Source: Tetracentron sinense
Taxonomy: Eukaryota; Streptophyta; Magnoliopsida; Trochodendrales; Trochodendraceae
Assembly (NCBI GenBank): GCA_015143295.1
Contig: CM026564.1
Span: 12,326,416-12,390,415 of the forward strand
Direction: 5' to 3'
Length of the DNA: 64,000 bases
The notes below the pieces were generated by a model, which was not told the origin of the DNA, searched no databases, and was given only the letters and a program-made list of their open reading frames with translations. The first letter of the stretch is position 1; every line of letters starts with the position of its first letter. The position numbers and the translations under genes are program-made. Shown in pieces: positions 14,564-62,457 of this stretch.

Positions 14564-15778
14564 TGAAATTACCCTGATCAATGATCTCTATGACCTAGAG
14601 GGGGGGTGAATAGGTCTATCTAAGAACTTCTAACCAATTTTTAATTTTTCAAATAATTAGTTTAGAAATCAATAAACAATTCACACAAACAATCCACACA
14701 AATCAAACACAACAGATTTTTACGTGGAAAACCCTTACGGGAAAAAACCACGGGACCTCGTCCAGCAACAAACTTCACTATAAGAAGAATTCAAGTACAA
14801 GACAAGACCTTGCCCAAATCGGACTTGACGTTCCTAGGTACAGAATCTTACTCTTGATTTCCACGAACCAGTAGGTTCGATCTCTACCGTAGCAGCTTCG
14901 GTTCCTGACCGACCAAATCTTCTCAAGCTACTTCAATACCACGATCACACATGATCGATCTCCTTCCACGAAGGCTGCGGATCATACACCGGACACACAC
15001 ACAGAGTGTAGGGTTGTGAATCAATTTAAAAAGCTTCAAACCCTAGAGGGATCGCATATAGATCTGAGATCAAACAATGCAAGATCAAAAGTATAGATCT
15101 ATACTTGCATTCTCTAGGATGATTGAAAAAGGAGGGATCACTAAAGATCTATGAGGAACAATGGAAAAAGCCCTAGAATAGTTTCTCAGACCTCTACTCT
15201 TTCAAAAATAAACAAAGATACGAATTAGGTCTCAAAAAAGTTGTTTATATAGGGTTTAGAAAAGAGTCCCGAAAAATAAAAATTATGTTTACGAGGACCG
15301 ATCGATCGGTGCTTATAACCGATCGCTCGGTCCAAAACCGATCGATCGCTATTTCCACGGAGAGATTGGTTAAAAATTGCCTCTCTGGAAAAATACCCCA
15401 TACAAATTTTTTGACCAGTCGATAACCACCGATCGCTCGGTAGGCCACCGATCGATCGGTCTCAACACCGAGCGATCGGTTGAGACAGAATTTTAGCCAA
15501 AACAATTTTCTTTTATTTTTTTTTTATTCAAATAAGACCAAAAGACTTTGTTAGGCTTAAAACTATCCTCCTAGGTATATTTAGAGTTATCTAAGTCAAA
15601 TCCAACCTAGGTAGGGGTCTCTAAGTCCATTACCTGTCTAGATCCGGAGTACAAGCTTTTTCTTCAATATCTTTAGTCTTCTCGAAACTTTAACTCTTCC
15701 GACAAGTTAAACAAGACACAACACACATGTCCTATCTAATGATCACAGAATTTGCCAACACCTATTTCTGGATTTACA
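14564..15778 (-). repeat. Copia 1 3' LTR
   Basis: Begins TGAAATTACCC and ends GGATTTACA on the plus strand. Contains the palindrome array at 15297-15480 and a TATA box (minus TATATAAACA, 15242-15251) 45 bp downstream of the array in element sense. Confidence 0.93.
15297..15480 (-). promoter_or_regulatory. Palindrome array, Copia 1 3' LTR
   Basis: Sites start at 15297, 15318, 15337, 15357 (degenerate), 15428, 15447 and 15467: spacing 21, 19, 20, 71, 19, 20. Three are the exact palindrome or its one-base variant. The 71-bp gap holds CTCTCTGGAAA and CCCCATACAAA, the same spacer as in the Gypsy-type LTRs. Confidence 0.85.
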
Positions 15779-15790
15779 ATCTCCCCCTTT
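15779..15790 (-). other. Polypurine tract of Copia 1
   Basis: Minus strand AAAGGGGGAGAT abuts the 3' LTR and would prime plus-strand DNA synthesis. Similar purine runs at 16191-16205 and 18024-18040 are extra copies. Confidence 0.85.
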
Positions 15791-15994
15791 GGTAATTCCG
15801 GGACAAAACAAGACTAACTCACATACTAGGTTCAAATTTTCCCAAATGATTCAAAAATGAAAAATTGAACCTTTACATGACTCAATAAAAAATTTCATGA
15901 CATTCAACTTGTCATGTTTCAACAATCTTAGAACTTGTTTGCCTGCACAAGCTCAACTAAAACCCTATGAAGCATGGGAAATAAAAGATTTCAT

Positions 15995-16110
15995 AATAGG
16001 TTACAAGTGCATCCATAACAAGTTCATGTTACAAGTGCATGCATAACAAGCATCCATAACAAGTTCATGTTACAAGCGCATGCATAACAAGCATCCATAA
16101 CAAGTTCATC
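15995..16110 (-). repeat. Tandem repeat upstream of the Copia 1 PPT
   Basis: About 2.5 units of 45-50 bp with GCATCCATAACAAGTTCATG and CAAGTGCATGCATAACAAG. It lies in the untranslated stretch between ORF3 and the PPT. Confidence 0.75.
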
Positions 16111-16496
16111 ATGTTCAACCATATATCATAGTTCCAAAATATGCAGTTCCAAAATATGCCATACTTGCGCCATACACTACTTTTACACTACTCTCCCCCT
16201 TTTTGGCTCGAAATGCCAAAGGTAGAATGGAAATAAATGAATTGAGGTAAAATGATCATATGAGATGAGATAACAAAAAATCAGAGTAAAAGTGCAAACA
16301 TCATCTCATAGAGAATAATCAACATCCAAGACAATACCATTCATAAACATCCAAGTCAATATCATCCATATGTGGTATGTACTGAGTACAACCAAGACAA
16401 AATACATCCAATGTCTCAAAATAAACTAGGACAAAGTAAACTCCTAAACATAAATACATGAAACATATGGAGTAGCCTAGTACATCAAACTAACTC

Positions 16497-17699
16497 TCAC
16501 TCCTCTTCATCAGAAGTGAGATGGGACTCATAATATGCTCTAAAATCACGAACATCCCGCTGGACACTCAGCACTACTGCATCAAGTGATCCAAGTCGAC
16601 CTCGGATCTCTGTAGTGAATTCCTGGTAAGATGAAACATGAGTCTGGAGATCCATCTGCATCTCCCTCATCATTCTGGCAAGATCATCAATCGAGGCAAG
16701 AGGTGGATGAGAGGACCCAGTACCAACTTCTGCTTCCTCCTCAGTATCTCAAACTGAAGCATTTGAGAAACTCTGAGCTAAGGTCTTTTTGTTGACCCCT
16801 TGAGAACTAAGGAGTTTAGTGATCAGGGAACCAAATGGAAGAGCTCCAACTACAGTTTGAGTTTGATGGGCTTGAATCATCAAATCAATAATGTGTGCGG
16901 CAAGATCAATATCATGTCCACGAAGGAGACTGAACAAAAATCGGGCTCTATCTTCCCTAAGGTCTGCAGTATGAACCTTTGGGTGGATATTGGCACTCAT
17001 TACTAGGTTTACAAGTCTTGCATCCCTAGTGAGTTTAGACACTTCAATAAAGGAACCAACCCAAAGTGTAGGAGCACCACAAAGAAAGGCGACTACATTG
17101 TTCATAGATTCTTTATCCTCATCATTCTTATATTTATAAGGATAATAAGCATTTGGAACTCGAGGACAACCAAGAAATTTAGCAATGACATTAGGATTTA
17201 TCAAAACAGATTTTTCTAAAGATCGAGATTTAAAAGACCAGGTTTTAGAGTTGATTTCAGAGAAATTTGAGTAAAATTCCTGGACTAACTGAATAGGAGC
17301 AGGACCAGATAATGTGAGAATACCTTCCCATTGACGATCGGTAATGAGCTTAGGAAGGTGATAATCACCAAAATCGGAAATTCTAATACCCCTTTCAACC
17401 ATAACAGCCTTCTTGCTAAAATACTCACTATAAAGCCGAGCAGCAGTAGGACTAATGAAGGGACCCAATAGAACATTCGAGGATGAACAAGCTTTTCCTT
17501 TTTGTTTCCAGGTTTTATCTGCCAAAGACTTTTGGCTATTTTCAGAAGTAGAATAAATCATTCTACGGATTGGTCTATCCCCTATTGAAATCCCATGACC
17601 TATTGGAGTGAAAGAGTAGGGCTCATTGAGATCCTCTTCCTCGAGAGGGTCCTCTTGGTTGTTGAGGACCAATCTCTGGCGTTTAGAGACACCGGACAT
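16497..17699 (-). pseudogene. Copia 1 ORF3 (Sirevirus 3' ORF, 'env-like')
   Basis: A frame of 401 codons from ATG 17697-17699 (MSGVSKRQRLVL...) to the stop at 16497-16499, broken once by TGA at 16749-16751 after 316 codons. An upstream in-frame ATG at 17795 would add a hydrophobic leader, but the basic MSGVSKRQ start is favoured. The central part (LLGPFISPTAARLY, FLGCPRVPNAYYP, ARFLFSLLRGHDIDLAAHIIDLM) has the look of the large third-ORF proteins found after pol in Sireviruses, often called env-like though the function is unproven. The tail after the stop is acidic with probable coiled coil (LARMMREMQMDLQ). No transmembrane segment is evident in the favoured frame. A putative internal promoter lies just upstream. 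The single stop is the type left by CpG decay. Confidence 0.7.
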
Positions 17700-17928
17700 G
17701 AGGAATGCAAGAATAACTAAGGAGTATGAGAAAACCATCACGAATTTTTGATGCCCTAGATGTGAAAAGTAAACCAAAATCAAGAAAATGAACAAAGTTT
17801 ACCTTTTTAGATGCTTGGAAACCCTTGGAGTAGAAAGAAATGACCGTAAGAGGGATTTGGAGGAGAAGGAACCGAGAGATTGCTCTAGAGTTCGGAGAAC
17901 AAAAGAATAGTAAAATGAGAAATGAGGG

Positions 17929-17986
17929 TTTTATAACCCTGTTCACGAAAGACCGATCAATCGGTCATTAACACCGAGCGATCAGT
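17929..17986 (-). promoter_or_regulatory. Putative internal promoter of Copia 1 ORF3
   Basis: Two LTR-type palindromes at 17952-17965 and 17973-17986 (21 bp apart, as in the LTR) lie 16 bp upstream, in element sense, of TATAAAA (17929-17935). ORF3 begins about 230 bp downstream. The leader has AAAAGGTAAAC near 17805, a possible 5' splice site. Promoter activity is inferred. Confidence 0.55.
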
Positions 17987-19127
17987 GGTCTAGAAAATTT
18001 TTTGAAAATTTTTACTTAAAACCATTTTTCTCCCCCTCAACCAAAGCAAGATTTAAACTCATTTTCACCTCAAAATCACCTAATAACTATGCACTTATGC
18101 AAACATTTATTTCATCAAAATCATAAAGAATATTCAACCAAGAATTTATATTACAGAATAGTTATGAACAAGGATTATGTAAATAACTTTTAGTTTCCAT
18201 AAGTGATTAATTATGATTTTTGCATCAAATTCACATTTAGAGTCAAGAAACGCTCAGAAGTAATGTGTGTGTAATATTAAAAATTCATAACATGACTCTG
18301 AGGATTGGTTTCATCCACAATACAAGATTTTGACATTATAGCATAAAAGGTATTCTAGAATGTTTAAAAACTAGAATTAAAACCAAGAGACATCCATAGA
18401 ATTATGATGAGCAATGTTTACCCCAAATTTGATCAATAAAGTCATTTTATTTTATAATCAAATTTTACACATTATCTGTTCTTTGGACAGTGGTGACTTT
18501 TACACAAGTAAGAAGGTAGCCCTCTCTAATGACAGTGGGGGCTTTCACACTAGCAACCCATATAGATACCTACTGTTTGTCTAGGTAGCCATTACTCATT
18601 GTTTGCATTCACTAGAAGCTATCACACAAACTCACAGGTAGTCCTTTCCATGTCAATAATTTTTAAAACAAGGGGGCTCACCTTATGGAATTTTAATCAC
18701 ATTGGTTATACTAGATTTGATTAAACTAGGGAACCATATGATATAATATTAGAATCTATAAATAGGAACTAATATCATCTCAAGAATCAGTTAGAGTGTA
18801 TGTGCAACACATAACATCTTTGTTTACTCAACTCTAACTGAGATTGGTGATCATGACCATTTTAAATCACCAGATAGAACCAATAGTTGAACTATCCTTA
18901 TTTACTCAATCCTATGAAATATTTAACCTTGGAATTAATATTCAATTATGATTTCAAGGAAATAAATTTATGCATAACAATAGGAAAGAAGGTCATATAA
19001 ACACTTGCAACATTTTTCAAATTTTTGAATGTTTTTGGATTTTTATTAGTTAAAGAAAACAAAATAAAATAGCTCTATGACTAAAATGAAACAAGAAGAA
19101 CACATAGGCTATGAAGAAAGCACACCA
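17987..19127 (-). other. Copia 1 untranslated spacer between pol and ORF3
   Basis: About 1.1 kb of AT-rich sequence with no coding motif, apart from a PPT-like TCTCCCCCTC at 18029-18038. Such a spacer is expected in Sireviruses. Confidence 0.7.
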
Positions 19128-20991
19128 TCACTCAACTCCGCACAAACCAATGGATTTCCTAAGGAACTCAAACCTAAGGGAATCTAAGGGTTTTGTGAGA
19201 ATGTCTGCAAATTGTTTCTCTGTTTGGACATACTCAATACACACAACATTTTGCTCAACTAAATCACGAATGAAGTGATGCCTAATGTCAATGTGTTTTG
19301 TGCAAGAATGTTGGACGGGATTTTTGAAAATATTGATAGCACTTGAATTATCACAATACACAGTCATAGTGCCTTGTTCAATCCCGTAATCATGTAACAT
19401 CTGCTTCATCCACAGAAGTTGAGTGCAACAACTGCCAGCTGCTATGTACTCAGCTTTGGCAGTAAACAATGAAATTGAATTATGTTTTTTGCTAAGCCAA
19501 GCAACTAAGCAGTTTCCAATATAGAAACACCCTCCGGAGGTGCTCTTCTTATCATCAGCATTTTCGGCCCAGTCGGCATCGGAATATCCAACTATTGTGG
19601 CATTGGTATCAAAAGAATACCAGAGGCCAAATGATGGAGTTCCACTTACATATCGAATGATACGCTTGACTGCAAGTAAGTGAGACTCTTTTAGGCTCGC
19701 TTGATAACGGGCACATGCTCCAACACTAAAGGCAATGTCTGGTCTAGTGGCAGTTAGGTAAAGCAAACTACCAATCATGCTTCTGTAAGAAGTTTGATCA
19801 ACATCCTTGCCTGAAGTATCTTTACTAAGTTTTGTTGTTGAACTCATAGGAGTCCTAGCATGCTTAGTAGAACTCATACCAAATTTCTTCACCAGATTTT
19901 TAGCATATTTGATTTGAGATACTGAGATCCCAGAATCTAATTGCTTGATCTGAAGACCAAGGAAGAAACTCAGCTCACCAACCATGCTCATTTCAAATTC
20001 ATTTTTCATTTGTTCAGCAAATGATAGAGCATGTAAGTCTAATATGGAACCAAACACAATGTCATCAACATATATCTGGGCGATGACAATATTTGTCTAC
20101 TCCCTCTCTCGAAAATCCCTTTTTCAAGAGATAAGTAGTCAACCTCTCATACCAAGCTCTAGGAGCTTGCTTTAAACCTTAGAGGGCCCTTTTCAATCGA
20201 TAGACTTGATCAAGGTGATGTGGATCTTCAAACCCTTTTGGTTGTTCCACATAGACTTCTTCCTGTAAAATGCCATTCAGAAAGGCACTCTTAACATCCA
20301 TTTGAAAAAGCTTGAATTTCATATGGCAAGCCACAGCTAGAAGAATTCTGATTGATTCTAGCCTGGCAACAGGAGCAAATGTCTCATCGAAGTCAATGCC
20401 TTCAATTTGGGTGTATCCTTGTGCAACTAACGTAGCCTTATTTCTTATGATAGTACCTTTTTCATCAGATTTGTTCTTGAAAAGCCATTTGGTACCTATC
20501 ACATTTGTATTGTTAGGCCTAGGTACTAAATACCAAACATCATTCCTAGTAAACTGAAGTAACTTTTCTTACATTGCATTGATCCAATTATCATCTGCAA
20601 GGGCTTCAACTACATTCTTGGGTTCAAAAGATGAAGTATAGCAAATGTAGCTAACTTCATTTTTAATTTGTTTCCTTGTTCTCACTCCACTTTCAAGATC
20701 ACCAATAATATCTGTGGAGGTGTGAGGACTTATGACCCTTGGATGTGTAGGTTTTAATGGAGATGATTGCTTAGTAATAAGTGGAGTTGAAGGAGTTTCA
20801 ACATTTTCATTTCCAGCACTATCATCATCCTCAAGTTGCACATTTTCAACACCAGAGTCATCAACAACTACATTGATGGACTCCATAATTGTAGAGGTTC
20901 TCAAGTTATACACTCGATAAACTCTACTGTTTGTGGAATACCCAAGAAATATCCCTTCATCACTCCGGGATTCAAATTTGCCCAGTTGCTC
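19128..20991 (-). pseudogene. Copia 1 reverse transcriptase and RNase H
   Basis: Copia RT-RNase H region continuing the integrase frame. Readable motifs: [10 protein letters not shown] near 20490, [23 protein letters not shown] near 20300, catalytic YVDDIVFG near 20070, GSLLYLTATRPDI near 19760, RNase H acidic motifs YSDADWA, AEYIAAG and YCDNSSAINI, then KHIDIRHHFIRD. These convert the RNA to DNA. Breaks: stops at about 20992, 20569 and 20179, and a frameshift with a small deletion between 20179 and 20057, just ahead of YVDD. From 20057 to 19128 the frame is open for 309 codons. Catalytic residues are present, but the chain cannot be made intact. Confidence 0.85.
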
Positions 20992-22290
20992 TCAATCTTT
21001 AAGGATATAGCATTTACTTCCGAATTCTCGAAAGTACTTAACACTGGGTTTCTTGTTATTCCACAACTCATATGGGGTTTTCTTTGTTCTAGAGCTTAGA
21101 AAAACTCGATTAACTATATAGCAAGCAGTGTTAACTGCTTCAGCCCAGAAATGAGAAGCTAGATTATTGCTATGAAGTATAACTCTAACCATCTCTTGGA
21201 GAACCCTGTTCTTCCTCTCCACAACACCATTTTGCTGAGGTGTAATGGGTGTAGAAAATTCATGTTTGATACCCGGCTCATCACAAAAGTCGTTGTACTT
21301 AGAGTTTTCAAAATCCTTTCCATGATCACTTCGAATTCGGGTAATTGGGCATCTTTTCTCATTTTGAATTTTCAAGCAAATACTTTTGACATTTTCAAAA
21401 GCATCGGATTTCTCTCTTATAAATGCCACCCATGACATTCTGGAGAAATCATCAACTATGACTAGGATGTATCGCTTTCCACCTAGACTTTCAGTTCTTG
21501 TAGGACCCATAAGATCTATATGAATTAATTCCAGTGGATATGAAATAGCAATACTTAAAGTCTTCTCATGTGGGGTTCTAATTTGTTTACCAATCTGACA
21601 TGGCCCACACACAGTAGTAGAATGCTTTCCTAGTTTGGGCATACCTCTCACTAGTTCTTGCTTTGAGATTTTGCATAGGTCTTTGAAGTTCATATGACCT
21701 AGCCTTCGGTGCCACAAATCAACTTCCTCAATTTTAGCCCTATTACAAATATTTGAGAAATTAGAACTAGGGATTAAGCCGTAGCAATTGTCAATGGTTC
21801 TCAACCCTTCTAGAACACACTTACCTTTACCATTAATGACTAAGCATTTATTTTGGATAAAGTGCACAGCATGGTTATCATCACATAGTTGACTTATGCT
21901 AATCAAATTAGCTTTCAGTCCTTCAACAAACAATGCATTTTTCAATTTTGGTATGCCTGGTGAATCGATGATACCCTTCCCTTTAACTAATGACTTGCTT
22001 CCATCATCAAAAGTAACAGTCCCATCTGGACAGTACTCAAATTGAGTAAATAGGGACTTGTTACCTGTCATATGCCGAGAACACCTACTATCGAAGTACC
22101 ACATTTCTGTGTTTTGGGCTTTAAAGGCAGTATGAATGACAAGACACTTAAGGTCATCCTTTCTCACATACACAGTTTTTAAACTTTGTTTAGTCATTTG
22201 AATATTGTTCTGTGTAGTAGAGACCTTTTTCTTTTTAGACCTTCTAGAACTCTTTCTGTTCTGTTCAGTTCTAGCATAATGATTTGTCAC
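20992..22290 (-). pseudogene. Copia 1 protease and integrase
   Basis: 432 open codons. Protease: the active-site motif at about 22080 reads DSRCS where Copia proteases have DSGCS, so the Gly is lost. Then EGLKANLISISQLCD and the zinc-binding HRRLGHMNF...CGPCQIGK. Integrase core: first Asp in HIDLMGP, second in IRSDHGKDF, Glu in GVVERKNR, all kept. Family role: polyprotein cleavage and insertion of the cDNA. It begins two frames away from the upstream gag segment and ends in TGA at 20992. RT follows in the same frame past that stop. Confidence 0.85.
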
Positions 22291-24369
22291 ATTCTTTCCT
22301 CTTGAGTAATTATAAGGAGTGAATATATGTCATTTTCATTTCTAGAAATTTGAGCAATCCTATTGACATCTTCGCTCAAAATTCTAGATTTTTCAGCCAG
22401 AACTTGAATCTGCATTTTAAGATTCCCTTGACTTTGATTTTGATTCCATGAACCATTTTGGGGAGCTCTTCTAAACGCATTACAGTTTGGTCGAATGTGA
22501 CCTCTTACACCACAAAAGTGCCATGTGGGTATGAATTTAGAAAGAGGATGAGGATTTCTTCTAAAAGGAATTTGATTCCTCAAAGCATTCACCCTAGGAG
22601 CTGCATTTCTAGGCTTTACAACATTTGTATAAGCCTTAGTACTTGATATAGAAGGTACATTCACTTTGGGATCAGAATGTATTGGTTCAAACACAGCACT
22701 AGCCATTGTACCAACAGCTAAAGGACCAGCTGGTGTGTCAGCATGTCCTATCCCAGATCTATTAGAATTTGATCTATATTTTCTAACTAATTCATCTAGG
22801 CAGCTAGTATTTCCAAACATTCTTACTTCTTTCTCAAGAGTATAGACCTTCTGAATCAAGTCAGTCTTGTCTTTAAGAGTTATATGATGTTCTTTTTCAA
22901 GAAATTTCACCTTATCAACAAGAGAATCTTTTAAAGATTCCAGCTCCACTAATAGAGTCCTTGACTCTTCAACTTCTTTCAAGGATTCTTTCAAGGAAGT
23001 GTCTCTTTCAACTTCTAATCTTCTGACCTTTTTCAAGCTGACTAACTAGAGTACTTTTCTCCTTTGCTTCTAGTTTACAAGTATCTCTTTCATTTTGAAT
23101 GATTTTAAGTTTTTTGCTCAAAGAGATTTTTGCTTTAGTCAATTCCAAACTTTCAGAATACAACTTATCATAAGTTGTTTTCAAATCTTCATCACTTTCA
23201 GAATCAGTATGACTCTTCTCAATGTCTCCACTAGACTCAGTGTGACTACTTTCATCACTTCTATCCTTCTCATTAACCACCGAGGCAGTCTCAAGAATCC
23301 CAGAAAGGGATACAGTGAAAGCAGTATGATTATCAGTTTCTTCACTTGAAGAGGAACTGTCCGATTCTTCATTCTCGGAATCACTGTCATCCCAACAGGC
23401 ATTCATCACCTTGCCCTTACTCTTCTTCTTGTTAGGACAGTTAGGTGAAATATGACCGAAGCCATGACATTCATAACATTGAACACCTTGGGATTTCTTG
23501 TCGCCACTCTTGGAATTTTTCTTGATTTCCCAGGGCTTAGACTTTGACTTCTCAAAAGATTTTCCTCCTTGTTTAGGATTGAACCTCTTTTTCGTTCTAA
23601 AACATTTTCAAAATTTTTTAACGAAGAGAGCCATTTCTTCCTCATCCATCTCTCCATCACTGTTAGTCTCATCCAAAGATTCCTTAATTGATTTCAAGGC
23701 TAAAGATTTGGTCTTCTTGGATGGTCGAAGATTGAGTTCATAAGTTTGGAGTGAACCAATTAATTCTTCAATCTTCAGAGAGTCAACATTTTTACTCTCT
23801 TCAATAGCAGTGACCTTGGGTTGAAATCTCTTAGGTAGAGATCTAAGGACTTTTCTAACTATCTTGGACTCAGTTAATCTTTCACCTAAGTTGAAACTAG
23901 CATTGACAATGTCACTAAGTTTTGCATAAAATTCATCAAATGTGTCATCGTTTTCCATTTTTAAATATTCAAATTTGGTGGTTAACATTTGGAGTTTTGA
24001 GATTTTAACAGTGGTGGTACCCTCATGGGTAATCTCAAGAATGTCTCATGCCTCCTTTGCTGTTTCACATGAAGAAATTCGTCTGAATTCCTCAACTGTG
24101 ACTGTAGTAAAGATAGCATTGAGTCCTTTAGTATTCCAACCAGTTGTCTCAAGCTCTTCTCTGGTCCATTCATTAGAATATTTGACGACAGTCAAATCAC
24201 CTAGAGTTTTCACAGGCGTAGTCCACCCATTTTGAATAGACATCCAAATTCTCTCGTCAATTGATTTGAGAAATGCTCTCATACGGGCTTTCCAATATGC
24301 GTAATTATTCCCATCGAACAGTGGGGGATGAGAGACTGAACCGCCCTCTCTTAGAGTACTCATGATCAC
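22287..24369 (-). pseudogene. Copia 1 gag
   Basis: Starts at ATG 24369 (or the in-frame ATG at 24363), 50-60 nt inside the PBS. The N-terminus (PPLFDGNNYAYWKARMRAFL) is the retrotransposon gag motif of Copia elements; VRKVLRSLPKRFQPKVTAIE follows near 23860. The zinc knuckle CYECHGFGHISPNC lies near 23460, a Ser/Glu-rich stretch follows, then a long coiled coil (about 23250-22800). A second knuckle near 22500 (WHFCGVRGHIRPNC) has Trp in place of the first Cys. Breaks: TGA at 24046, TGA at 23608, and a frame change near 23020 offset again near 22290. Gag would form the particle around the RNA. Confidence 0.8.
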
Positions 24370-24421
24370 AGAGTAAGATATACAGGATCACACTAAAGGG
24401 TTTAGTCTTAAAGGTGAACCT

Positions 24422-24433
24422 GCTCTGATACCA
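24422..24433 (-). other. Primer-binding site of Copia 1
   Basis: Minus strand TGGTATCAGAGC, complementary to the 3' end of initiator tRNA-Met, two bases inside the 5' LTR. It would prime minus-strand synthesis. Confidence 0.92.
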
Positions 24434-24435
24434 AT

Positions 24436-25649
24436 TGAAATTACCCTGATCAATGATCTCTATGACATAGAGGGGGGGTGAATAGGTCTATCTAAGAACT
24501 TCTAAATAATTTTTAATTTTTCAAATAATTAGTTTAGAAATCAATAAACAATTCACACAAACAATCCATATAAATCAAACACAGCAGATTTTTACGTGGA
24601 AAACCCTTACGGAAAAAAACCACGGGACCTCGTCCAGCAACAAACTTCACTACAAGAAGAATTCAAGTACAAGGCAAGACCTTACCCAAACCGGACTTGA
24701 CGTTCCTAGGTACAAAATCTTACTCTTGATTTCCACGAACCAGTAGGTTCGATCTCTGCCGTAGCAGCTTCGGTTCCTGACCGACCAAATCTTCTCAAAC
24801 TACTTCAATACCACGATCACACATGATCGATCTCCTTCCACGAAGGCTCCGGATCATATACCGGACACACACACAAAGTGTAGGGTTGTGAATCAATTTA
24901 GAAAGCTTCAAACCCTAGAGGGATCTCATACAAATCTGAGATCACATAATGCAAGATCAAAAGTATAGATCTATAATTGCATTCTCTAGGATGATTGAAA
25001 AAGGAGGGATCACTAAAGATCTATGAAGAACAATGGAAAAAGCCCTAGAATAGTTTCTCAGACCTCTACTCTTTAAAAAATAAACAAAGATACGAATTAG
25101 GTCTCCAAAAAGTTGTTTATATAGGGTTTAGAAAAGAGTCCCGAAAAATAAAAATTATGTTTATGAGGACCGATCGATTGGTGCTTATAACCGATCGCTC
25201 GGTCCAAAACCGATCGAAGCTATTTCTACCGAGAGATTGGTTAAAAATTGCCTCTCTGGAAAAATACCCCATACAAATTTTTTGACCAGTCGATAGCCAC
25301 CGATCGCTCGGTAAGCCACCGATCGATCGGTCTCAACACCGAGCGATCGGTTGAGACAGAATTTTAGCCAAAACAATTTTTTTTTATTTTTTTTTGATTC
25401 AAATAAGACCAAAAGACTTTGTTAGGCTTAAAACTATCCTCCTAGGTATGTTTAGAGTTATCTAAGTCAAATCCAACCTAGGTAGGGGTCTCTAAGTCCA
25501 TTACCTGTCTAGATCCGGAGTACAAGCTTTTTCTTCGATATCTTCAGTCTTCTCGAAACTTTAACTCTTCCGACAAGTTGAACAAGACACAACACACATG
25601 TCCTATCTAATGATCACGGAATTTGCCAACACCTATTTTTGGATTTACA
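24436..25649 (-). repeat. Copia 1 5' LTR
   Basis: Same termini as the 3' LTR. TATA box (minus TATATAAACA) at 25114-25123. Small indels and mostly transition differences separate the two LTRs, pointing to a fairly recent insertion. Confidence 0.93.
25169..25351 (-). promoter_or_regulatory. Palindrome array, Copia 1 5' LTR
   Basis: Sites start at 25169, 25190, 25209 (one base short), 25228 (ACCGAGAGATTGGT), 25299, 25318 and 25338; spacing 21, 19, 19, 71, 19, 20. The fourth site is better preserved here than in the other LTR, confirming the four-plus-three layout. Confidence 0.85.
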
Positions 25650-25660
25650 CTTACTATAAA

Positions 25661-27075: not shown

Positions 27076-27099
27076 CCTCCTATTAAATCTTTTGTCTGA

Positions 27100-53300: not shown

Positions 53301-53465
53301 AGCAATATAATTCATCATGTTGCATTCATAAAAGCCGGTAAAACCCTTGAAATCTTGTGCACTTGACTTGACTGAAATTACCCTTTTTATGCTTGAAACC
53401 TTGTCTACCGTATCATGCGTGTCATGCTTGTATCATGCGTGTATCATGCTTGCTTGTTCTCAAAA

Positions 53466-53722
53466 GTAATCTACTTGTGAGGGAAGGGAGACCCTTCTTC
53501 CTAGAATGCTCATGCTTGTCATGCTATGTCATGTCATGCCTACTCGGAAGAGTAAACTACTTGTGAGAGAAGGGAGACCCTTCTTCCTAGAATGCTCATG
53601 CTTGTCCTTCCACTTGTGAGATTCACTTGTGAGATGTCCTTGTGAGATGCACTTGCGAGGGAAGGGAGACCCTTCTTATGATATGTATTCACTTGCGAGG
53701 GAAGGGAGACCCTTCTTATGAA
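53466..53722 (-). repeat. Tandem repeats in the Gypsy C LTR
   Basis: GAGGGAAGGGAGACCCTTCT-type units occur four times, in two forms (one ending in a CCTAGAATGCTCATGCTTGT stretch, one in ATGATATG). The same set recurs in the 5' LTR at about 60910-61150. Confidence 0.85.
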
Positions 53723-54618
53723 AATGCATGATTGTCTTGTCCTTACCAAAAGCGAGGTAAAACATATCGTAGGATATGCCCCACCACTAAATCCCATTCT
53801 CGAAAACCTCGGTAAATCTATCATGCATGCGTGCTCGTGAGGTCGTGTGCATACTTGCATTTGGAATTACATATGGCATTTGAGTAATTCATAACACATA
53901 CATCAATGATTTGAGCAATTTAGTATTCATATAATTTAGGGAAAGCGAACAATCACACTATCATGACCCTAGCAATTTCCATAAACCTTAAACATGCATT
54001 TTCTTAATTTATTATTCATTTTATTCACCTTGGCATTTCATCAAACATGGTGCATTCATTATTTATTAACCCTACAACATGCTTTTCTAGGTGGGTTTTA
54101 CTCACATCACATATGTATGTTCATTATGGGTACAATGCCCTCCCCGTTCATCCATCACATCAATACACACGGCATCCAATCGTCCACATCCATCTCCATT
54201 CACCATTCACAACCCATCTCATAATACATGGATATATAAAGGAACACAAAGAAAATAAAGGAAAAGAAGAACTATAACTAGGAGGGTAGCAAGAAGTACC
54301 GACCTTGATCAAGTGAGGAAGAAATTCCCTTCCAAAAACGACCGTGAGTTGCTGCCTAGCTTGCGGAGATGCTCCTCACGAGCTTGTGCCTTGATCTTGA
54401 AGAAAAATGGGCTTGAGTTGAGTGTGGGTTCACAAACCCCTTGATTTCTCCAAAATGGAAATCCTAGGTATAGGAATCACCCTCTCCTCTCTTCTTATCT
54501 CCCAATCTCTCTAAGTGTCGAAATGAAGCCCTAAAGGCTCGGGTTAAACTCTTAAGGTAAGAGTGAACCGACCAAAAGACCATAATACCCTTACTGAAAT
54601 TTCTGCAAAAACACGAGT

Positions 54619-54784
54619 ACCGAGCGATCGGTGTTAGCCTACCGATCGATCGGTTTCATAACCGAGCGATCGGTTAAAATTTCACTCTCTGGAAAATTTC
54701 CCCATACAAAAATCTTGACCAGTCGATAGCTACCGATCGATCGGTTTTGGACCGATCGATCGCTCTATGGACCAAGCGATCGGT
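54619..54784 (-). promoter_or_regulatory. Palindrome array, Gypsy C 3' LTR
   Basis: Six sites start at 54619, 54641, 54661, 54732, 54751 and 54771 (22, 20, 71, 19, 20). Compared with the 5' LTR, one roughly 20-bp unit is missing from the four-site half. Confidence 0.85.
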
Positions 54785-54996
54785 TGCCTGCAGGTCCAGA
54801 CTGTTTTGGCCATATCTTTTGACTCGCTCGTCGGATTTTGACGATTCAACTTGCGTTGGGTTCGTACTTCGAAAAGGAAAATTTCTGACATTTTGGAATT
54901 TTCAATTTCTTCCTTATTTATTAATTATACCTCTTTAAAGGCAAAATGGCAACGAAAGTGTCATGCATTAAATGTGAAAAAGTCCGGGGCTCTTCA

Positions 54997-55010
54997 TCCT
55001 CCCCCCCTTA
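54997..55010 (-). other. Polypurine tract of Gypsy C
   Basis: Minus strand TAAGGGGGGGAGGA directly abuts the 3' LTR. Confidence 0.85.
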
Positions 55011-55097
55011 CAAAAATTTCATCCTCGAAATTTAGACGCTACTTGCATTACAAACAAAATAGAAAATTATAAGTCATATACAAACTTATGCAAAAAC

Positions 55098-58000
55098 TCA
55101 TTCAAATAATTCTGGGTACTTCGCTTTGACTTCGGCTTCACGCTCCCATGTAGCTTCTTCCCGAGCATGGTGTTGCCATTGCACAAGAACCAAAGGGATT
55201 GTCTTGTTGCGAAGCACTTGATCTGTTCGATCCAAAATCTGAACCAGCTTTTCAATCAAGGTGAGGTCCTCTTGAATCTCCAACGGTTCCAAGTCTATGA
55301 CATGCGAAGGATCCGCAATGTACTTTCGAAGCATAGACACATGGAAGACGTTGTGAACTGCGGCAATGTGAGGTGGGAGAGCTACCCTGTAAGCAACCTC
55401 ACCAACTCGCGATAATCTCAAAAGGCCCAACATACCGAGGACTGAGCTTGCCTCGCTTGCCAAATCTCATGATCCCTTTGCTAGGAGATACTTTCACAAA
55501 AACTTGATCCTCTACTTGAAATTCCAAGTCCCTACGGCGCGTTTCCGTATAACTTTTCTGGCGATCTTGAGCGGCTTTCAATCGATCCCGAATGATCTTA
55601 ACTGTGTTTTCAGTTTGCTCAATCAATTCCGGACCAAGTACTTTCCTTTCTCCTACCTCATCCCAATAGAGAGGAGACCTACAACTTCGCCCATACAAGG
55701 CCTCAAATGGTGCCATTTAGATACTTTCCTGATAGCTGTTATTATAGGCGAATGCAACCAAAGGCAAGTGCTCTTCCCAACTGCCTCTGAAATCCAACAT
55801 ACAAGCCCGAAGCATGTCTTCAATAACTTGGTTCACTCTCTCAGTTTGTCCATCCGTCTGTGGATGAAAAGCGGCACTGAAATCAAGTCGGGAACCCATA
55901 GCCTCTTGGAAACTTTTCCAAAATCTTAACGTGAATCTTGGATCCCGATCCGACACAATACTGACGGGCACTCCGTGCAACCTCACTACTTCCTTGATGT
56001 ACAAAGCGCCTAACTGACTAGAGTTGAAAGTAGTTCGATAGGGTAAGAAATGTGTGGACTTTGTCAGACGATCCACTACAACCCAAATCGCATCTGAGCC
56101 CCTTACCATTTTTGGCAAGCCAACTATGAAATCCATGGATATGTTCTCCCATTTCCACTCGGGAATAGGAAGAGACTGCAATAGACCGGCGGGTCGCATG
56201 TGTTCTGCTTTCACCTGTTGGCACACTAAGCACCGTGCCACATATTCAGCAACATCCCTCTTCATATTCCACCACCAAAAGTGACTCTTGAGGTTCCGGT
56301 ACATCTTCGTACCCCCTGGATGCACAGTGTACTTTGCCCGGTGGGCTTCATCCATAATCTCCCTCCGAAGATCTGCATTGGCTGGGACACACAGCCTTCC
56401 CTTGAATGTGATAGCACCTTGGCTAGTGAGAGAGAAGTCCTCACTACCCTTAGCAACTTCCTTGTCCCGATAAGCCAACAATTCAGCATCCGTGGCTTGG
56501 TATTCTTGGATCAAATCTATAATGTATGGCCGAACCGTGACATTTGCCAAGATAGGACTACGGACAGAGTCATTCACACTAATGTCCAGATTTGCCAAGT
56601 CTTCAAGTAGCTTCCATTCCTGCACTAACATGCATGCTAATAACCCCGGAGGTCTTCTACTCAAAGCATCAGCCACTATATTTGCTTTACCCGGGTGGTA
56701 TTGAATGGTACAATCATAGTCTTTCAAAAATTTCATCCAACGCCGTTGCCTTAGATTCAGCTCCTTTTGGGAAAAGAGATACTTGAGACTCTTGTGATCG
56801 GTAAACACATAGAACTCCACCCCATAAAGGTAATGACTCCAAATCTTAAGTGCAAACACGACCGCCGCAAGCTCCAAGTCGTGCGTGGGATAATTCTTGT
56901 CATGCTCCTTCAATTGCCTTGATGCATAGGCAATGACTTTCTTGTGCTGCATGAGTATACACCCAAGTCCAACGTGTGAGGCATCACTATACACCTCATA
57001 CCCATAAGGTCCAGATGGCACAGTAAGGACAGGGGCTGTAGTAAGCCTCTTCTTCAGTTTCGTGAACCTGATCTCGCAGTTATCACTCTATACAAACTTG
57101 GCGTTCTTCCTTGTCAGGTAAGTGAGCGGTGCTGCAAGGCTGGAGAAACCTTCTACGAATCTCTTGTAGTAGCTTGCCAACCCAAGAAAGCTGCGTATCT
57201 CGGTAACACTCTTGGGCCTCGCCCAACTCATAACTGCTTCGATCTTCTTTGGATCTACCGAGATACCTTCTGCAGAAACAACGTGGCCTAGGAATGCCAC
57301 CTCTTCCAACCAAAACTCACACTTGCTAAGTTTGGCGTATAGCTTGTGCTCTCTTAGCATTTCCAAAGCAAGGCGTAGGTCGCGTGTGTGATCTTCCCGT
57401 GTCTGGGAATAGACCAAAATGTCATCAACAAATACAATCACGCACCTATCAAGATATGGCCGGAACACCCGGTTCATCAAATCCATAAAGGCTACCGGCG
57501 CGTTCGTGAGTCCAAAAGGCATCACCAAGAACTCGTAGTGTCCATACCGAGTCCTGAAAGCAGTTTTGGGAACATCTTCCACCTTAATCTTCAACTAGTG
57601 ATAACCCGATCGAAGGTCTATCTTTGAGAAAAATCTCGCTCCCTTCAACTGATCGAACAAATCATCAATTCTAGGCAATGGATACCTATTCTTTATAGTG
57701 ACCTTGTTCAATTGCCGGTAATCGACGCACATCCGCATCGAACCATCTTTCTTCTTAACAAACAACACCGGGGCACCCCACGGTGAGACACTTGGTCGAA
57801 TGAAACCAAGGCCTTGTAATTCCTCCAACCGAGTCTTCAACTCCTTGAGTTCTACCGAGGCCATTCTATACGGAGCCCGAGAGATGGGAGCTGTGCCTGG
57901 TGCAAGCTCAATCACAAACTCAATCTCCATGTCTGGAGGTAATCCTGGCAACTCCTCTGGAAATACATCCAGGAATTTACTCACGACCGGAATAGTCGAA

Positions 58001-58433
58001 GAGTCCTTTGCCTCGAGGTTCGCTAAGCTCAATGCCGCAAAACGAGCGATATCTCTACTTTTTAACCCCCGAAAGTGAAATGGTTTTCCTTCTACCGGCT
58101 TGAAGAGTACCATCTTCTCAAAGCAAGCTACATGCCCATGATGTGTTGCTAACCAATCCATTCCCAATATAACATCAAAGTCTTGGAATCCCAGGACAAT
58201 GAGATCAACCGCCAACTCGTGGCTTCCAACTTGGACCACACTATTTCTATACACTTTATCTACCAATACTGTTTTGCCGAGAGGAGTCGAAATAGCTAAC
58301 TCCGGTTCTAGCTGACTTGGCTCTACAGAAAAGCCTTCTGAAAAACTTGACGAGACGAATGAATGAGTAGACCCGGTATCCATCAACACTCGAGCCAAAT
58401 ACTCATTGACTAGTAGGGTTCTTGAAATTTTGA
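55098..58433 (-). pseudogene. Gypsy C pol: protease, RT, RNase H, integrase, chromodomain
   Basis: One frame, broken by a few lesions. Protease [12 protein letters not shown] near 58370; [35 protein letters not shown] near 57690 and catalytic FVDDILVYS near 57430; RNase [11 protein letters not shown] near 56980 and [11 protein letters not shown] near 56800; integrase zinc finger near 56300-56200 ([11 protein letters not shown]); integrase core [17 protein letters not shown] and [10 protein letters not shown]; chromodomain VLVQWQHHAREEATWE near 55160. The chromodomain would direct insertion into heterochromatin. Breaks: TAG at 57595, TAG at 57085, TAA at 55717, and a frame change near 55400-55440 ahead of the chromodomain. 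All catalytic residues I checked are present. Confidence 0.9.
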
Positions 58434-58569
58434 CTAGCGGAGTTAATCCATGCATCAACAGTGTATACATGTAGGTATATATACATATATAACATGCCAA
58501 GTACGTACACAATCAATTAATACTTAACAGTTTAATTTATGGATAATTAAATAAGCTACAACTGCGTAC
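58434..58569 (-). other. Probable intron between gag and protease, Gypsy C
   Basis: 136 bp, minus strand, GTACGC...CGCTAG, with a branch-like TTAAC 13 bp before the end. It sits exactly between the SDDVA gag tail and the KISRTLLVN protease leader and is AT-rich and non-coding. Gypsy A has a 135-bp interval of the same type at the same place. The phase does not close in this copy because about 2 nt are missing just upstream of the donor. Confidence 0.6.
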
Positions 58570-59814
58570 CTTGCTACATCGTCAGATGCAAGTGCATCAC
58601 CCTCTGTTAAGGTAAAAACTCGCCCCTGGTTTGCCTGGCGAGACTGAGGTGTAGACCGGGTAGTCTGAGATGACGCCTGATATGATCCTGCTGGGCGTGC
58701 TGGTGGCCTAATCCCCTGAGACTGGCCTGGTAAATGCCGACTGGGGCAATCCCTGATCATATGGCCTTGGCGACCACAATGAAAGTATCCACCCGATGCC
58801 CTTCGGAAATCTCCTGCCGGGTGCCTTCGGCCTCACGAAGTGTAGACCTCGTGTGTATAGGTCGGAGGGCCGGAGGTGGAGCATACCTCATCGTCTGAGG
58901 TGCAACAGGCCGTGGGGCCGGAAGAGCCTGAGGTCGCAGTGCCTGCGGCACATACTGCCGGGGAGCTAGAGGCGCATAAGTTGGCCTCATCGGTGGTGTT
59001 GGCCATGTATACTGATAAGGGCCGCTACGAGCCCGCCTCTCTGAAGGTGCTGAACTACTAGCTTGGCCTCTCGCCAACTCCCTCTTCTTGGACACTGTCT
59101 CTGAATTGGCCTCGACCAATAAGGCTTTGTCTACTACCTCAGGGTAGGTAGCATGTCTGAAAACCGAAACCTTCTCCATGATAACATCTTTGAGCCCTTG
59201 CTGAAACCTTCTTGCCTTCATTGCCTCGGTAGTAACCATGTGAGTCGCGAAGCGTGATAGCTCCGAGAACTTGGCCTCGTATTGTGCCACCGACATCAAA
59301 CCTTGCTCGAGGTTGATGAATTCTCTCTCTTTCTTTTCCCGTGCTCCAATCGGAAAATACTTCTTGTAAAAAGCATCCTTGAACTCATCCCAAGTCCAAG
59401 GTTGACCTTGCATGGTCAAGTCCCGTGTCCTCAAAGCGGACAACCACCAATGGTGGGCTTCACCTTCTAGCATGAAAACTGCCCATGCTACTTTCTCTTC
59501 CTCTGTAGGAGAGAGCACCGCAAACATCTTATCAACCTGGAGGATCCAAGCCTCCGCAGCAAGAGGGTCCACACTCGCATGGAAGGATGGAGGCCTCAAT
59601 CTCTGGAATGCCTTAACTCCAGCTGTACGATGTACTGGAGCTCCAGGCGGTGGAGTAGGTGCCGCTGATGCCAGTATAGTTTGCCGAGCCACCAGGATGG
59701 CAAGTGTCTCAGCAATAGAGCCTAAGACCTGAGAGAGGTCCGGTGCTCATCCTCATCCCGTGAAGAAGAGGAAGCTCTGGTATGTGGTCCACGACCCCGT
59801 GTGTTCCGTCTCAT
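58570..59814 (-). pseudogene. Gypsy C gag
   Basis: Start at ATG 59812-59814 (MRRNTRGRG), shared with Gypsy A. A frameshift near 59735 moves to the frame holding AFQRLRPPSFHASVDPLAAE and REKKEREFINLEQGLMSVAQ, open from 59692 to 58757. A second frame change near 58840 precedes the zinc knuckle (about 58785-58740), where YFHCGRQGHMIRDC has Tyr in place of the first Cys. A Pro/Gln/Ala-rich linker separates the two. Role: particle formation. Confidence 0.85.
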
Positions 59815-60159
59815 GACTAAAGTCCTGAGAATAATAACACCACATTAGTCTAACTTGAAACCACAATTTATTTCAATGCCATTTCCCAATAATTCAATTT
59901 GTATTAGTTGTATAATACTAATACACATCACATCAAGTCATCAAAGTATTCATCACATTATACTTATACTTTAGTGTTCTAGCGTACCTAGGACCCGTAC
60001 TTGGTTAAAGCAACCATTTTAGACTAAGACTAAAGTTTAGTCTTACACTTGGAACCAGACTCGCTCCCGACTTACTTCCTTCCTAACTTTTTTCCTAACA
60101 TATGCTCTTGTCAAGCCGTGGTATAAGATTCTAAATCACCCTAAAGACCTAAAGCCTAA

Positions 60160-60171
60160 GCTTTGATACCA
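60160..60171 (-). other. Primer-binding site of Gypsy C
   Basis: Minus strand TGGTATCAAAGC, initiator tRNA-Met type with one mismatch against the sites in Copia 1, Copia 2 and Gypsy A; four bases inside the LTR. Confidence 0.88.
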
Positions 60172-60175
60172 CTTC

Positions 60176-62457
60176 TGTCGCGACCCAAAACCCACCCTAG
60201 GAGTTAGAGTGAATCGCGGACGACTAAATCATGACTTACATGACTTGCTTGACAAACCACCTGCAAAACACCCACAGAGCATATACAATAGAGGATAACA
60301 GCGGAAGCATAACTATAAGACACAGCGGAAGTCTAACAAACCTCTAAGTATATACACATGGTCCAAGTTTTAATACAAAGAAATCAAAACAAAGAAAGTG
60401 CGGACATGCCCACCAAAATACATGGATATAATCACTCATGCTCACCCACAGCTAATCCACTCAGAATCTAACACCACCTACTGATAACCCTCTACGGGAG
60501 GTTCCTCCAAAGGCTCCTCGATGTACTCCTCCTCCACCCATGGACCAGGAGCACAAACATCAAATGGAGCAGCAGCTCCCTTAGAACCTGCCCACATAAG
60601 AAGTACGGCTGAGCATGGAATACTCAGTGGGTACTAAGCACTAACCAACAGTCATAGGTTACGGATAGCATACATAAAGCAGGAAACAATTCACGCATAT
60701 AAAGCAGGAATGATTTATATCACGACAATAAAGTAAAGCAATATAATTCATCATGTTGCATTCATAAAAGCCGGTGAAACCCTTGAAATCTTGTGCACTT
60801 GACTTGACTGAAATTACCCTTTTTATGCTTGAAACCTTGTCTACCGTATCATGTGTGTCATGCTTGTATCATGCGTGTATCATGCTTGTTTGTTCTGAAA
60901 AGTAATCTACTTGTGAGGGAAGGGAGACCCTTCTTCCTAGAATGCTCATGCTTGTCATGTCATGCCTACTCGGAAGAGTAAACTACTTGTGAGGGAAGGG
61001 AGACCCTTCTTCCTAGAATGCTCATGCTTGTCCTTCCACTTGTGAGATTCACTTGTGAGATGTCCTTGTGAGATGCACTTGCGAGGGAAGGGAGACCCTT
61101 CTTATGATATGTATGCACTTCCGAGGGAAGGGAGACCCTTCTTATGAAAATGCATGATTGTCTTGTCCTTACCAAAAGCGAGGTAAAACATATCGTAGGA
61201 TATGCCCCACCTCTAAATCCCATTCTCGAAAACCTCGGTAAATCTCTCATGCATGCGTGCTCGTGAGGTCGTGTGCATACTTGCATTTGAAATTACATAT
61301 GGCATTTGAGTAATTCATAACACATACATCAATGATTTGAGCAATTTAGTATTCATATCATTTAGGGAAAGCGAACAATCACACTATCATGACCCTAGCA
61401 ATTTCCATAAACCTTAAACATGCATTTTCTTAATTTATTATTCATTTTATTCACCTTAGCATTTCATCAAACATGGTGCATTCATTATTTATTAACCCTA
61501 CAACATGCTTTTCTAGGTGGGTTTTACTCACATCACATATGTATGTTCATTATGGGTACAATGCCCTCCCCGTTCATCCATCACATCAATACACACGGCA
61601 TCCAATCGCCCACATCCATCTCCATTCACCATTCATCATTCACCATTCACAACCCATCTCATAATACATGGATATATAAAGGAACACAAAGAAAATAAAG
61701 GAAAAGAAGCACTATAACTAGGAGGGTAGCAAGAAGTACCGACCTTGATCAAGTGAGGAAGAAATCCCCTTCCAAAAATGACCGTGAGTTGCTGCCCTAG
61801 CTTGAGGAGATGCTCCTCACGAGCTTGTGCCTTGATCTTGAAGAAAAATGAGCTTGAGTTGAGTGTGGGTTCACAAACCCCTTGTTTTGTCTCCAAAATG
61901 GAAACCCTAGGTTTAGGAATCACCCTCTCCTCTCTTCTTATCTCCCAATCTCTCTAAGTGTCGAAATGAAGCCCTAAAGGCTCGGGTTAAACTCTTAAGG
62001 TAAGAGTGAACCGACCAAAAGACCATAATACCCTTACTGAAATTTTTGCAAAAACACGAGTACCAAGCGATCGGTGTTAATGACCGATCGATCGGTTGCC
62101 TACCGATCGATCGGTTTCATAACCGAGCGATCGGTTAAAATTTCACTCTCTGGAAAATTTTCCCATACAAAAATCTTGACCAGTCGATAGCTACCGATCG
62201 ATAGGTTTTGGACCGATCGATCGCTCTATGGACCAAGCGATCGGTTGCCTGCAGGTCAAGACTGTTTTGGCCATATCTTTTGACTCGCTCGTCGGATTTT
62301 GACGATTCAACTTGCGTTGGGTTCGTACTTCGAAAAGGAAAATTTTTGACTTTTCAAAATTTTCAATTTCTTCCTTATTTATTAATTATACCTCTTTAAA
62401 GGCAAAATGGTAACGAAAGTGTCATGCATTAAATGTGAAAAAGTCCGGGGCTCTACA
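60176..62457 (-). repeat. Gypsy C 5' LTR
   Basis: TGTCGCGACCC...GGGGCTCTACA, 2282 bp. Hairpin 60609-60627; array 62062-62245; block GACTCGCTCGTCGGATTTTG near 62282 shared with LTR F and the Gypsy A LTR. Confidence 0.92.
62062..62245 (-). promoter_or_regulatory. Palindrome array, Gypsy C 5' LTR
   Basis: Seven sites start at 62062, 62083, 62102, 62122, 62193, 62212 and 62232 (21, 19, 20, 71, 19, 20). Sites 62083 and 62102 are exact ACCGATCGATCGGT. The gap carries CTCTCTGGAAAATTTTCCC and CATACAAA. Confidence 0.88.

What the first reader, a model, noticed from the sequence alone, without database searches (positions are those of the whole stretch)
15297..62245. One palindromic promoter cassette shared by Copia and Gypsy LTRs
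A roughly 190-bp block built from ACCGATCGATCGGT-type sites around a common spacer (CTCTCTGGAAA, CCCCATACAAA, GACCAGTCGATA) occurs in both LTRs of Sirevirus Copia 1 (15297-15480, 25169-25351) and in LTRs C (54619, 62062), F (45172), H (4591) and, in mirror orientation, G (2612). These LTRs otherwise have unrelated ends and lengths, and the coding regions belong to different superfamilies. Sharing of one regulatory cassette suggests transfer by recombination or template switching, or strong selection by one host factor. Palindromic CpG repeats in Sirevirus LTRs are, from memory, already known; the sharing with chromoviruses is the unusual part.
Basis: partly seen in the sequence, partly recalled or inferred. 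Interest (0 to 1): 0.88.

Follow-up and report, generated by a model that had tools for sequence, protein, structure and literature searches.

The report
Promoter module shared by unrelated retrotransposons
Two unrelated superfamilies of plant jumping genes in one genome carry the same roughly 190-base switch upstream of their promoters, apparently passed between them as a module and kept by selection, which matters because it would let one host factor turn both on.

Summary
The cassette is real. Seven to eight ACCGATCGATCGGT-type sites flank a unique 57-base spacer in the U3 of Copia1 (an intact Sirevirus-type element) and of four related Tekay/Del-type chromovirus LTRs (C, F, G, H). Copia and Gypsy copies are 70-77% identical inside and at shuffle level outside. 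Site spacing agrees to 1-2 bases; linkers between sites are at background. The 1.16 Gb genome holds 30,033 exact sites against 3 for the reversed control and 9,724 spacer cores against 0. Of 30 spacer loci examined, 6 lie in Copia1-type and 24 in Tekay-type LTRs; reverse transcriptase confirmed two of each. Two additions: sites with a TATA box precede the Copia env-like gene, and a second module (TGCGATCGATCGCA) replaces the first in an F-type LTR between conserved flanks. Best reading: a helically phased activator platform, moved between superfamilies at least once and kept by selection. Route and direction of transfer, activation, and the host factor are not shown.

The parts
14564..25649 (-). 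Copia1, Sirevirus-type Copia element with both LTRs (14564-15778 and 24436-25649), TSD CTTAC
15297..15480 (-). ACC-type cassette in Copia1 3' LTR; TATATAA 46 bases downstream
25169..25351 (-). ACC-type cassette in Copia1 5' LTR; TATATAA 46 bases downstream
17952..17986 (-). two ACC-type sites with TTATAAAA 16 bases downstream: probable internal promoter of the env-like gene
   Evidence: unit also in L035 and L036
16749..17798 (-). env-like ORF of Copia1 (PF20167)
52740..62457 (-). C, Tekay/Del-type chromovirus with TSD CCGCC; LTRs 52740-54996 and 60176-62457
54619..54784 (-). ACC-type cassette in C 3' LTR, one site deleted
62062..62245 (-). ACC-type cassette in C 5' LTR
55101..55406 (-). C-terminal chromodomain of C (PF00385, E 3.8e-05, 23.9 bits, just below the curated cut-off of 25.1; EEATWERE)
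43352..45844 (-). F, Tekay-type solo LTR nested in Copia2's 3' LTR, TSD AATTA
45172..45357 (-). ACC-type cassette in F; TATAAA 64 bases downstream
895..5068 (-). H, Tekay-type solo LTR, TSD CTTAA, interrupted by G
4591..4775 (-). ACC-type cassette in H; TTATAA 91 bases downstream
2376..4248 (+). G, Tekay-type solo LTR nested in H, TSD AAACA
2612..2797 (+). ACC-type cassette in G; TATATAA 57 bases downstream
47987..50341 (+). E, Tekay-type 5' LTR (PBS at 50346, gag fragment downstream)
48179..48416 (+). TGC-type array (TGCGATCGATCGCA), a second cassette type at the corresponding U3 position; TTTTAAA 28 bases downstream

Best explanation
The cassette is an upstream activating module of the LTR promoter. 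Seven to eight near-palindromic sites lie about two helical turns apart on one face of the DNA, around a fixed 57-base spacer with three further conserved motifs, directly upstream of the TATA box. It is most likely bound by one host (or element-induced) dimeric DNA-binding factor plus partners. Copia1-type Sireviruses and Tekay/Del-type chromoviruses have homologous copies, because the module passed between the lineages (one event explains the sample) and was then kept by selection. Shown: sharing, sharp limits, fixed geometry, lower divergence of sites than of linkers, TATA context, genome-wide abundance, and replacement of the module inside Tekay-type LTRs. Inferred: the binding factor, activation as the output, and the direction and route of transfer.
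For: Copia1 5' LTR against C, F, H and G: identity 0.70-0.77 inside (z 19.1-21.8), 0.51-0.59 in 150-base flanks (z -1.3 to 2.6). Spacer-only alignments of Copia1 with F, H and G beat all 2000 shuffles each. The spacer is 57 bases in all six copies measured; sites are 80-89% and linkers 24-39% identical between Copia1 and the Gypsy LTRs, and site order and spacing agree. Within groups of loci, sites differ less than linkers in all four sets (Copia 0.069/0.248, F 0.071/0.187, Cx 0.021/0.070, G 0.128/0.261); label permutation 0 of 20000, using 30 of 37 rows. Site starts fit a period of 10.0-10.15 bases (R 0.95-0.96). TATA-like boxes lie 16-91 bases downstream in the nine contexts examined. The env-like gene has its own site-TATA unit in 3 of 3 elements examined. 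30,033 sites against 3 control and 9,724 spacer cores against 0. 30 of 30 spacer loci are in Copia1-type or Tekay-type LTRs; RT confirms 2 and 2 of the four regions fetched for this. Eight Copia cassettes form one clade, UFBoot 100. L041 has F-type flanks on both sides (79% and 81.5%) but a TGC module between them, with homology resuming at the TATA box.
Against: Matching site i of Copia with site i of Gypsy is no better than permuted pairings (fraction of permutations at least as good 0.08-0.74 for the eight Copia-Gypsy comparisons), so homology rests on spacer and geometry, not on site-specific variants. In the Copia and F groups the linkers differ more (0.248, 0.187) than the flanks (0.121/0.097, 0.132/0.097), so linkers are not a simple neutral yardstick; and within the Copia group the spacer differs more (0.141) than either flank. 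The phase test leaves out the half-decayed site at the spacer head, which is out of phase, and the ACC cassettes are homologous, so they count once. C has only a weak TATA-like box, TATTAT. The cassette RNA also folds strongly (z -6.8 in the two tested). No expression, methylation or binding data exist here. The tree is unrooted, so the direction is unknown. The 30 loci come from the first 32 Mb of one 64.6 Mb contig, and some overlap or probably belong to one element.
Confidence: 0.65

Rival explanations
1. Convergence: both superfamilies independently evolved the same array because the same host factors read it.
For: Sirevirus families elsewhere carry their own palindromic repeats (PMC2829016 section 9); linkers are at background between Copia and Gypsy; the pairing test gives no site-specific signal.
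Against: A 57-base spacer of identical length with shared non-palindromic motifs, scoring above all 2000 shuffles for F, H and G, and identical site geometry are hard to reach twice. A second array type (TGC) has a different spacer, so the architecture does not force this spacer.
Confidence: 0.13
2. Silencing or hairpin element: the palindromes are kept because their RNA or DNA forms hairpins (small-RNA source, or an aid to reverse transcription), as proposed for maize Sireviruses.
For: Strong predicted RNA folds, z -6.80 (C) and -6.84 (Copia1); small-RNA hotspots at Sirevirus palindromes are reported (passages of PMC10760457, and PMC5311732). The two double changes at pair 6/9 are both still complementary.
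Against: Across 265 sites, 175 single-arm changes and 12 double changes at pairs 1-5 include no complementary double change; at pair 6/9 there are 136 single and only 2 double changes against 11.5 expected (sites are related, and 11 of the 12 doubles fall at pair 4/11, where 2.4 were expected). Fixed helical spacing and a conserved non-palindromic spacer are not needed for hairpins.
Confidence: 0.13
3. The cassette is a free-standing small transposon inserted into each LTR.
For: Sharp limits at the outer sites.
Against: No direct repeat of 5 or more bases within 12 bases of both ends in six copies tested, only two 4-base matches; same orientation relative to transcription in all seven copies.
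Confidence: 0.03
4. Vertical descent: the cassette was in the common ancestor of Copia and Gypsy LTRs.
For: Both have it in U3 just upstream of TATA.
Against: The flanks are at background, and the Copia-Gypsy cassette distance is like that between Tekay cassettes (F-G 0.72, H-G 0.70 identity against Copia-Gypsy 0.70-0.77; tree), too small for so old a split.
Confidence: 0.02

Closest known systems
Sirevirus repeated motifs (RM boxes), Bousios et al. 2010, PMC2829016
   Same: Clustered CpG palindromes in the first half of the LTR, CpG-rich, shortly upstream of TATA, with extra copies upstream of the env-like gene (section 9; passages; compare).
   Different: Reported there in 13 Sirevirus elements and absent from other Copia; here the same array and spacer are also in Tekay Gypsy LTRs. 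The site reads CCG..CGG and lacks the reported CGG-CCG core order; a unique fixed spacer is not described in the sections and passages I saw.
Plastic 5' CpG islands of Del (Tekay) LTRs, Cruz et al. 2014, PMC4029996
   Same: A CpG-rich, variable 5' part of Del LTRs (abstract, passages and section 14).
   Different: The held text does not contain the word palindrome and reports no CpG islands in eudicot Del; here the island is a defined array with conserved geometry shared with Copia.
Palindromic cis-region of maize Sireviruses (Bousios et al. 2016; not read, seen only through passages of PMC10760457 and PMC5311732)
   Same: Palindrome-rich regulatory part of the LTR; small-RNA hotspot.
   Different: In maize the palindrome was also the commonest motif in annotated Helitron structured regions, while Ty3 elements had no obvious structure peak (PMC10760457 section 10).
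LTR swapping and template-switch mosaics (Du et al., soybean; Sabot and Schulman 2007; seen only as reference titles in PMC5668417)
   Same: LTR parts move between elements.
   Different: By title and from my recall these concern elements within a superfamily or complex insertions, not a shared enhancer across Copia and Gypsy.

Membership tests
Sirevirus (Copia1) | PPT AGGGGGAG 10 bases before the 3' LTR, several copies, AT/TG attachment site | tested here: met
   three octamers in the internal region, the last 10 bases before the LTR, then AT/TG (definition, attachment site)
Sirevirus (Copia1) | 5' LTR/PBS junction CA/ATTGG TATCAGAGC | tested here: met
   TTTCA|ATTGGTATCAGAGC (definition)
Sirevirus (Copia1) | C-rich integrase signal, on average 21 bases from the LTR end | tested here: inconclusive
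   a run of seven C is present but ends about 36 bases from the LTR end (definition)
Sirevirus (Copia1) | Copia pol (RVT_2, Copia integrase region) | tested here: met
Sirevirus (Copia1) | placement in a reverse transcriptase tree with named Sireviruses | not tested
Sirevirus RM box (ACC sites) | palindromic repeats clustered upstream of TATA in the LTR and before env | tested here: met
Sirevirus RM box (ACC sites) | CGG-CCG core signature | tested here: not met
   site is ACCGATCGATCGGT; the order CGG..CCG occurs only across linkers. One of the 13 published RMs, Tnd-1, also lacks it
Tekay/Del chromovirus (C) | Gypsy pol with RVT_1 and a C-terminal chromodomain | tested here: met
   RVT_1, RNase H, Integrase_H2C2; PF00385 E 3.8e-05, 23.9 bits against cut-off 25.1
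Tekay/Del chromovirus (C) | Tekay motifs EEXTWEXE and (K/R)X(L/T)RX(k/r) | tested here: inconclusive
   EEATWERE present; the second motif reads QVLRNK, first residue differs (motifs)
Tekay/Del chromovirus (F, G, H, E) | coding region of the clade | tested here: inconclusive
   F, G, H are solo LTRs; E has only a gag fragment 56% identical to C. RT next to an F-type LTR (L037, by L034) and to a C-like LTR (L038, by L025) is 81% and 88% identical to C
free-standing transposon | target duplications around the cassette | tested here: not met
   six copies, 12 bases on each side

The most novel reading that the evidence does not exclude
Plant LTR retrotransposons of both superfamilies share a pool of interchangeable, helically phased enhancer modules built on CGATCGATCG. 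At least two types exist (ACC and TGC), each with its own spacer. [quoted passage not shown]
Probability: 0.4. Interest if true: 0.86.

Novelty: new variant of a known kind. Interest (0 to 1): 0.74.

Why it matters
Palindromic LTR arrays were described as a Sirevirus feature of unknown function. One array with the same spacer in Copia and Gypsy elements gives a natural comparison: whatever is conserved between them is the likely functional part. It makes testable whether one host factor coordinates thousands of unrelated elements, and whether retrotransposon promoters evolve by exchanging modules across superfamilies.

Tried and rejected
Free-standing transposon (no target duplications) and vertical descent (flanks at background) were rejected. 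A pairing test meant to show site-by-site homology gave no signal and is reported as negative. Repeated Copia-Gypsy exchange was suspected because L011 and L019 have Gypsy-like spacer letters, but the eight Copia cassettes examined form one clade, so one event suffices for the sample. In one search the spacer score for C_5 used a misparsed 68-base segment and is not used. TGC-type arrays in Copia1-type LTRs were looked for among 15 loci (10 distinct places) and not found: 11 loci had Tekay-type LTR matches, though three of these, L051-L053 at one place, also hold Copia-like gag. The other four (L039, L040, L049, L050) had none, and wider stretches around them (L054-L057) gave no hit to my retroelement proteins. 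Of 10 places chosen by the ACC site alone (of 21 listed and not yet held), 9 were Tekay-type LTRs and one, L066, unassigned. Two Tekay-type loci, L015 and L029, also showed weak Copia RT matches (33-36%) in their 3 kb, which I take for neighbouring elements but did not examine. Scans of viral contigs (21, 22, 45, 46) and genome contigs (47) found no relatives.
Full report
What is there. The window lies in an unnamed 1.16 Gb assembly (G000:C14:12326416-12390415). It holds nested LTR retrotransposons, which I take to be those of a plant because the element types are plant ones. Copia1 (14564-25649, minus strand, TSD CTTAC) has Copia pol domains, an env-like ORF (PF20167), the Sirevirus PPT octamer with AT/TG attachment site, and the Sirevirus primer-binding junction (definitions from passages and sections of PMC2829016). 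C (52740-62457, minus strand, TSD CCGCC) has Gypsy domains and a C-terminal chromodomain match just below Pfam's cut-off, with the Tekay motif EEATWERE (motif from passages of PMC3350952). F is a solo LTR nested in a Copia2 LTR (TSD AATTA); G (TSD AAACA) is a solo LTR nested in solo LTR H (TSD CTTAA).

The cassette. The window has 44 sites within two mismatches of ACCGATCGATCGGT; shuffles give 0.05 on average. In transcription orientation each cassette has three sites, a half-decayed site at the head of a 57-base spacer, then four sites (C's 3' copy lacks one). Start-to-start spacings of the main sites are 20/21, 19, 71, 19-21, 19, 21 in the six complete copies. The spacer holds CTATCGACTGGTC-like, TTTGTATGGGG and CCAGAGAG motifs. 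A TATA-like box follows 32-91 bases downstream of the LTR cassettes; in C it is only TATTAT. The arrays have CpG observed/expected of 1.53-1.89 against 0.52-0.69 in the rest of the LTR in the six cassettes measured (H was not measured).

Sharing. Between the Copia1 5' LTR and C, F, H or G the identity is 0.70-0.77 inside the cassette (z 19.1 to 21.8) and 0.51-0.59 in the 150 bases on either side (z -1.3 to 2.6). Blast of C's LTR against Copia1's LTR finds nothing outside the cassette and its few adjoining bases. The spacer alone, with its first ten bases removed, scores above all of 2000 shuffles for F, H and G. Linkers between sites are 24-39% identical between Copia1 and the Gypsy LTRs while sites are 80-89% and the spacer 72-82%. 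So sites, spacer and spacing have been kept while linkers and flanks have lost all resemblance. A result against simple array descent: pairing each Copia site with its counterpart is no better than permuted pairings, so the homology claim rests on spacer and geometry.

Genome-wide. The exact site occurs 30,033 times against 3 for the reversed control. The spacer core with five free bases occurs 4,832 + 4,892 = 9,724 times against 0. Of 30 spacer loci, 6 lie in Copia1-type LTRs and 24 in Tekay-type LTRs, none elsewhere; they come from the first 32 Mb of contig C1, and some overlap (L013/L014, L022/L023) or are probably two LTRs of one element (L020/L021). Of four neighbouring regions fetched, two encode RT 90-93% identical to Copia1 and two encode RT 81-88% identical to C. 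Of ten further places chosen by the site alone, nine are Tekay-type and one unassigned. In a tree of 37 cassettes (7 rows with truncated or rearranged arrays included) the 8 Copia cassettes form one clade with UFBoot 100; the tree is unrooted. In the seven-cassette tree the branch to Copia (0.17) is shorter than that to G (0.28), so the Copia cassette is no more distant than Tekay cassettes are from each other.

How it works. Starts of the main sites keep a phase of 10.0-10.15 bases (R 0.95-0.96; jitter control p 0.0008-0.0028 in the five ACC cassettes tested, which are homologous and so count once, and 0 of 5000 in E). The half-decayed site at the spacer head was left out and is out of phase. 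This puts the main sites on one face of the helix. In 265 sites from the 37 cassettes, changes in one arm are not compensated in the other at pairs 1-5 (175 single, 12 double, none complementary; 11 of the doubles are at pair 4/11). At the central pair 6/9 one arm is changed in 136 sites but both in 2, both complementary, against 11.5 expected (related sites, so no formal probability). This fits a dimeric DNA-binding protein that needs at least one good half-site better than selection for hairpins, although the RNA of the two cassettes tested folds strongly (z -6.80 and -6.84). Within each of four groups of loci, sites differ less than linkers, and sites less than either flank. Caveats: in the Copia and F groups linkers differ more than flanks, and in the Copia group the spacer (0.141) differs more than the flanks (0.121, 0.097), even though part of the spacer chose the loci. 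Activation rather than repression is inferred from position: directly upstream of TATA in LTRs and again upstream of the env-like gene, where two sites in Copia1, two in L035 and one in L036 precede the same unit, CTTTCGTGAACAG followed by TTATAAAA. Bousios et al. reported extra repeats before env in Sireviruses (section 9 of PMC2829016).

A second module. LTR E and other Tekay-type LTRs carry arrays of TGCGATCGATCGCA with similar 20-22 base spacing and another spacer. This site occurs 6,889 times against 1 control. L041 matches the F LTR at F 1-476 (79%) and 730-2026 (81.5%), and between these carries a TGC array instead of the ACC cassette; L044 does the same at lower identity (75% and 71%), while L043 and L046 match only downstream of it. 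The aligned sequences of F and L041 resume homology at GGGGCTATAAATAGGGG, the TATA box. Hence the upstream module is exchanged as a unit within Tekay LTRs, which makes transfer to a Copia LTR less strange. TGC arrays were not seen in Copia1-type LTRs among 15 loci; the search with the TGC spacer did not complete.

Route of transfer. Not shown. Template switching between co-packaged RNAs, gene conversion, and nested insertion followed by deletion all fit. F inside a Copia2 LTR shows that Tekay U3 sequence does land inside Copia LTRs. No direct repeat of 5 or more bases within 12 bases of both ends surrounds the cassette in six copies, against a free-standing transposon.

Comparison with print. 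Known: palindromic, CpG-rich repeats upstream of TATA in Sirevirus LTRs and before env, described as Sirevirus-specific among the Copia elements compared (sections and passages of PMC2829016); plastic 5' CpG islands in Del LTRs, absent from eudicot Del (passages and section 14 of PMC4029996); a maize palindrome shared by Copia and annotated Helitrons while Ty3 elements lacked a structure peak (section 10 of PMC10760457). I found no report of one array shared by Copia and Gypsy LTRs in the listings of searches of an open-licence library; most listed papers were seen only as listings, and subscription papers and Bousios et al. 2016 itself were not read. Sirevirus and Tekay placement by a named RT tree could not be done because the protein database was off.

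Noticed in passing
47987-50341; L039-L053: A second palindromic array type, TGCGATCGATCGCA, 6,889 exact copies genome-wide, in Tekay-type LTRs and in loci I could not assign.
   Followed up: partly
L055:152-1273 and 3222-4366: Direct repeats of about 1.15 kb, 85% alike and about 3 kb apart, each with TGC-type sites and no hit to my retroelement proteins: perhaps a non-autonomous LTR element.
   Followed up: no
L066, around the two sites near 800: Variant palindromes (GCCGATCGATCGGT type) in a context matching no LTR held; could be another host of the module.
   Followed up: no
43146-46509: Tekay solo LTR F nested in a Copia2 LTR; Copia2's other LTR shows the empty site.
   Followed up: yes
895-5068: Solo LTR G nested in solo LTR H in opposite orientation, each with its own target duplication.
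   Followed up: yes
7033-7311: Patatin-like phospholipase fragment (PF01734, E 4.2e-06, just below the curated cut-off), probably an exon of a host gene on the minus strand.
   Followed up: partly
13796-13848: Short tandem repeat TCTGGCCGGTTTTGACCGAT, rich in CCGGT/ACCGAT half-site-like words; relation to the cassette not examined.
   Followed up: no
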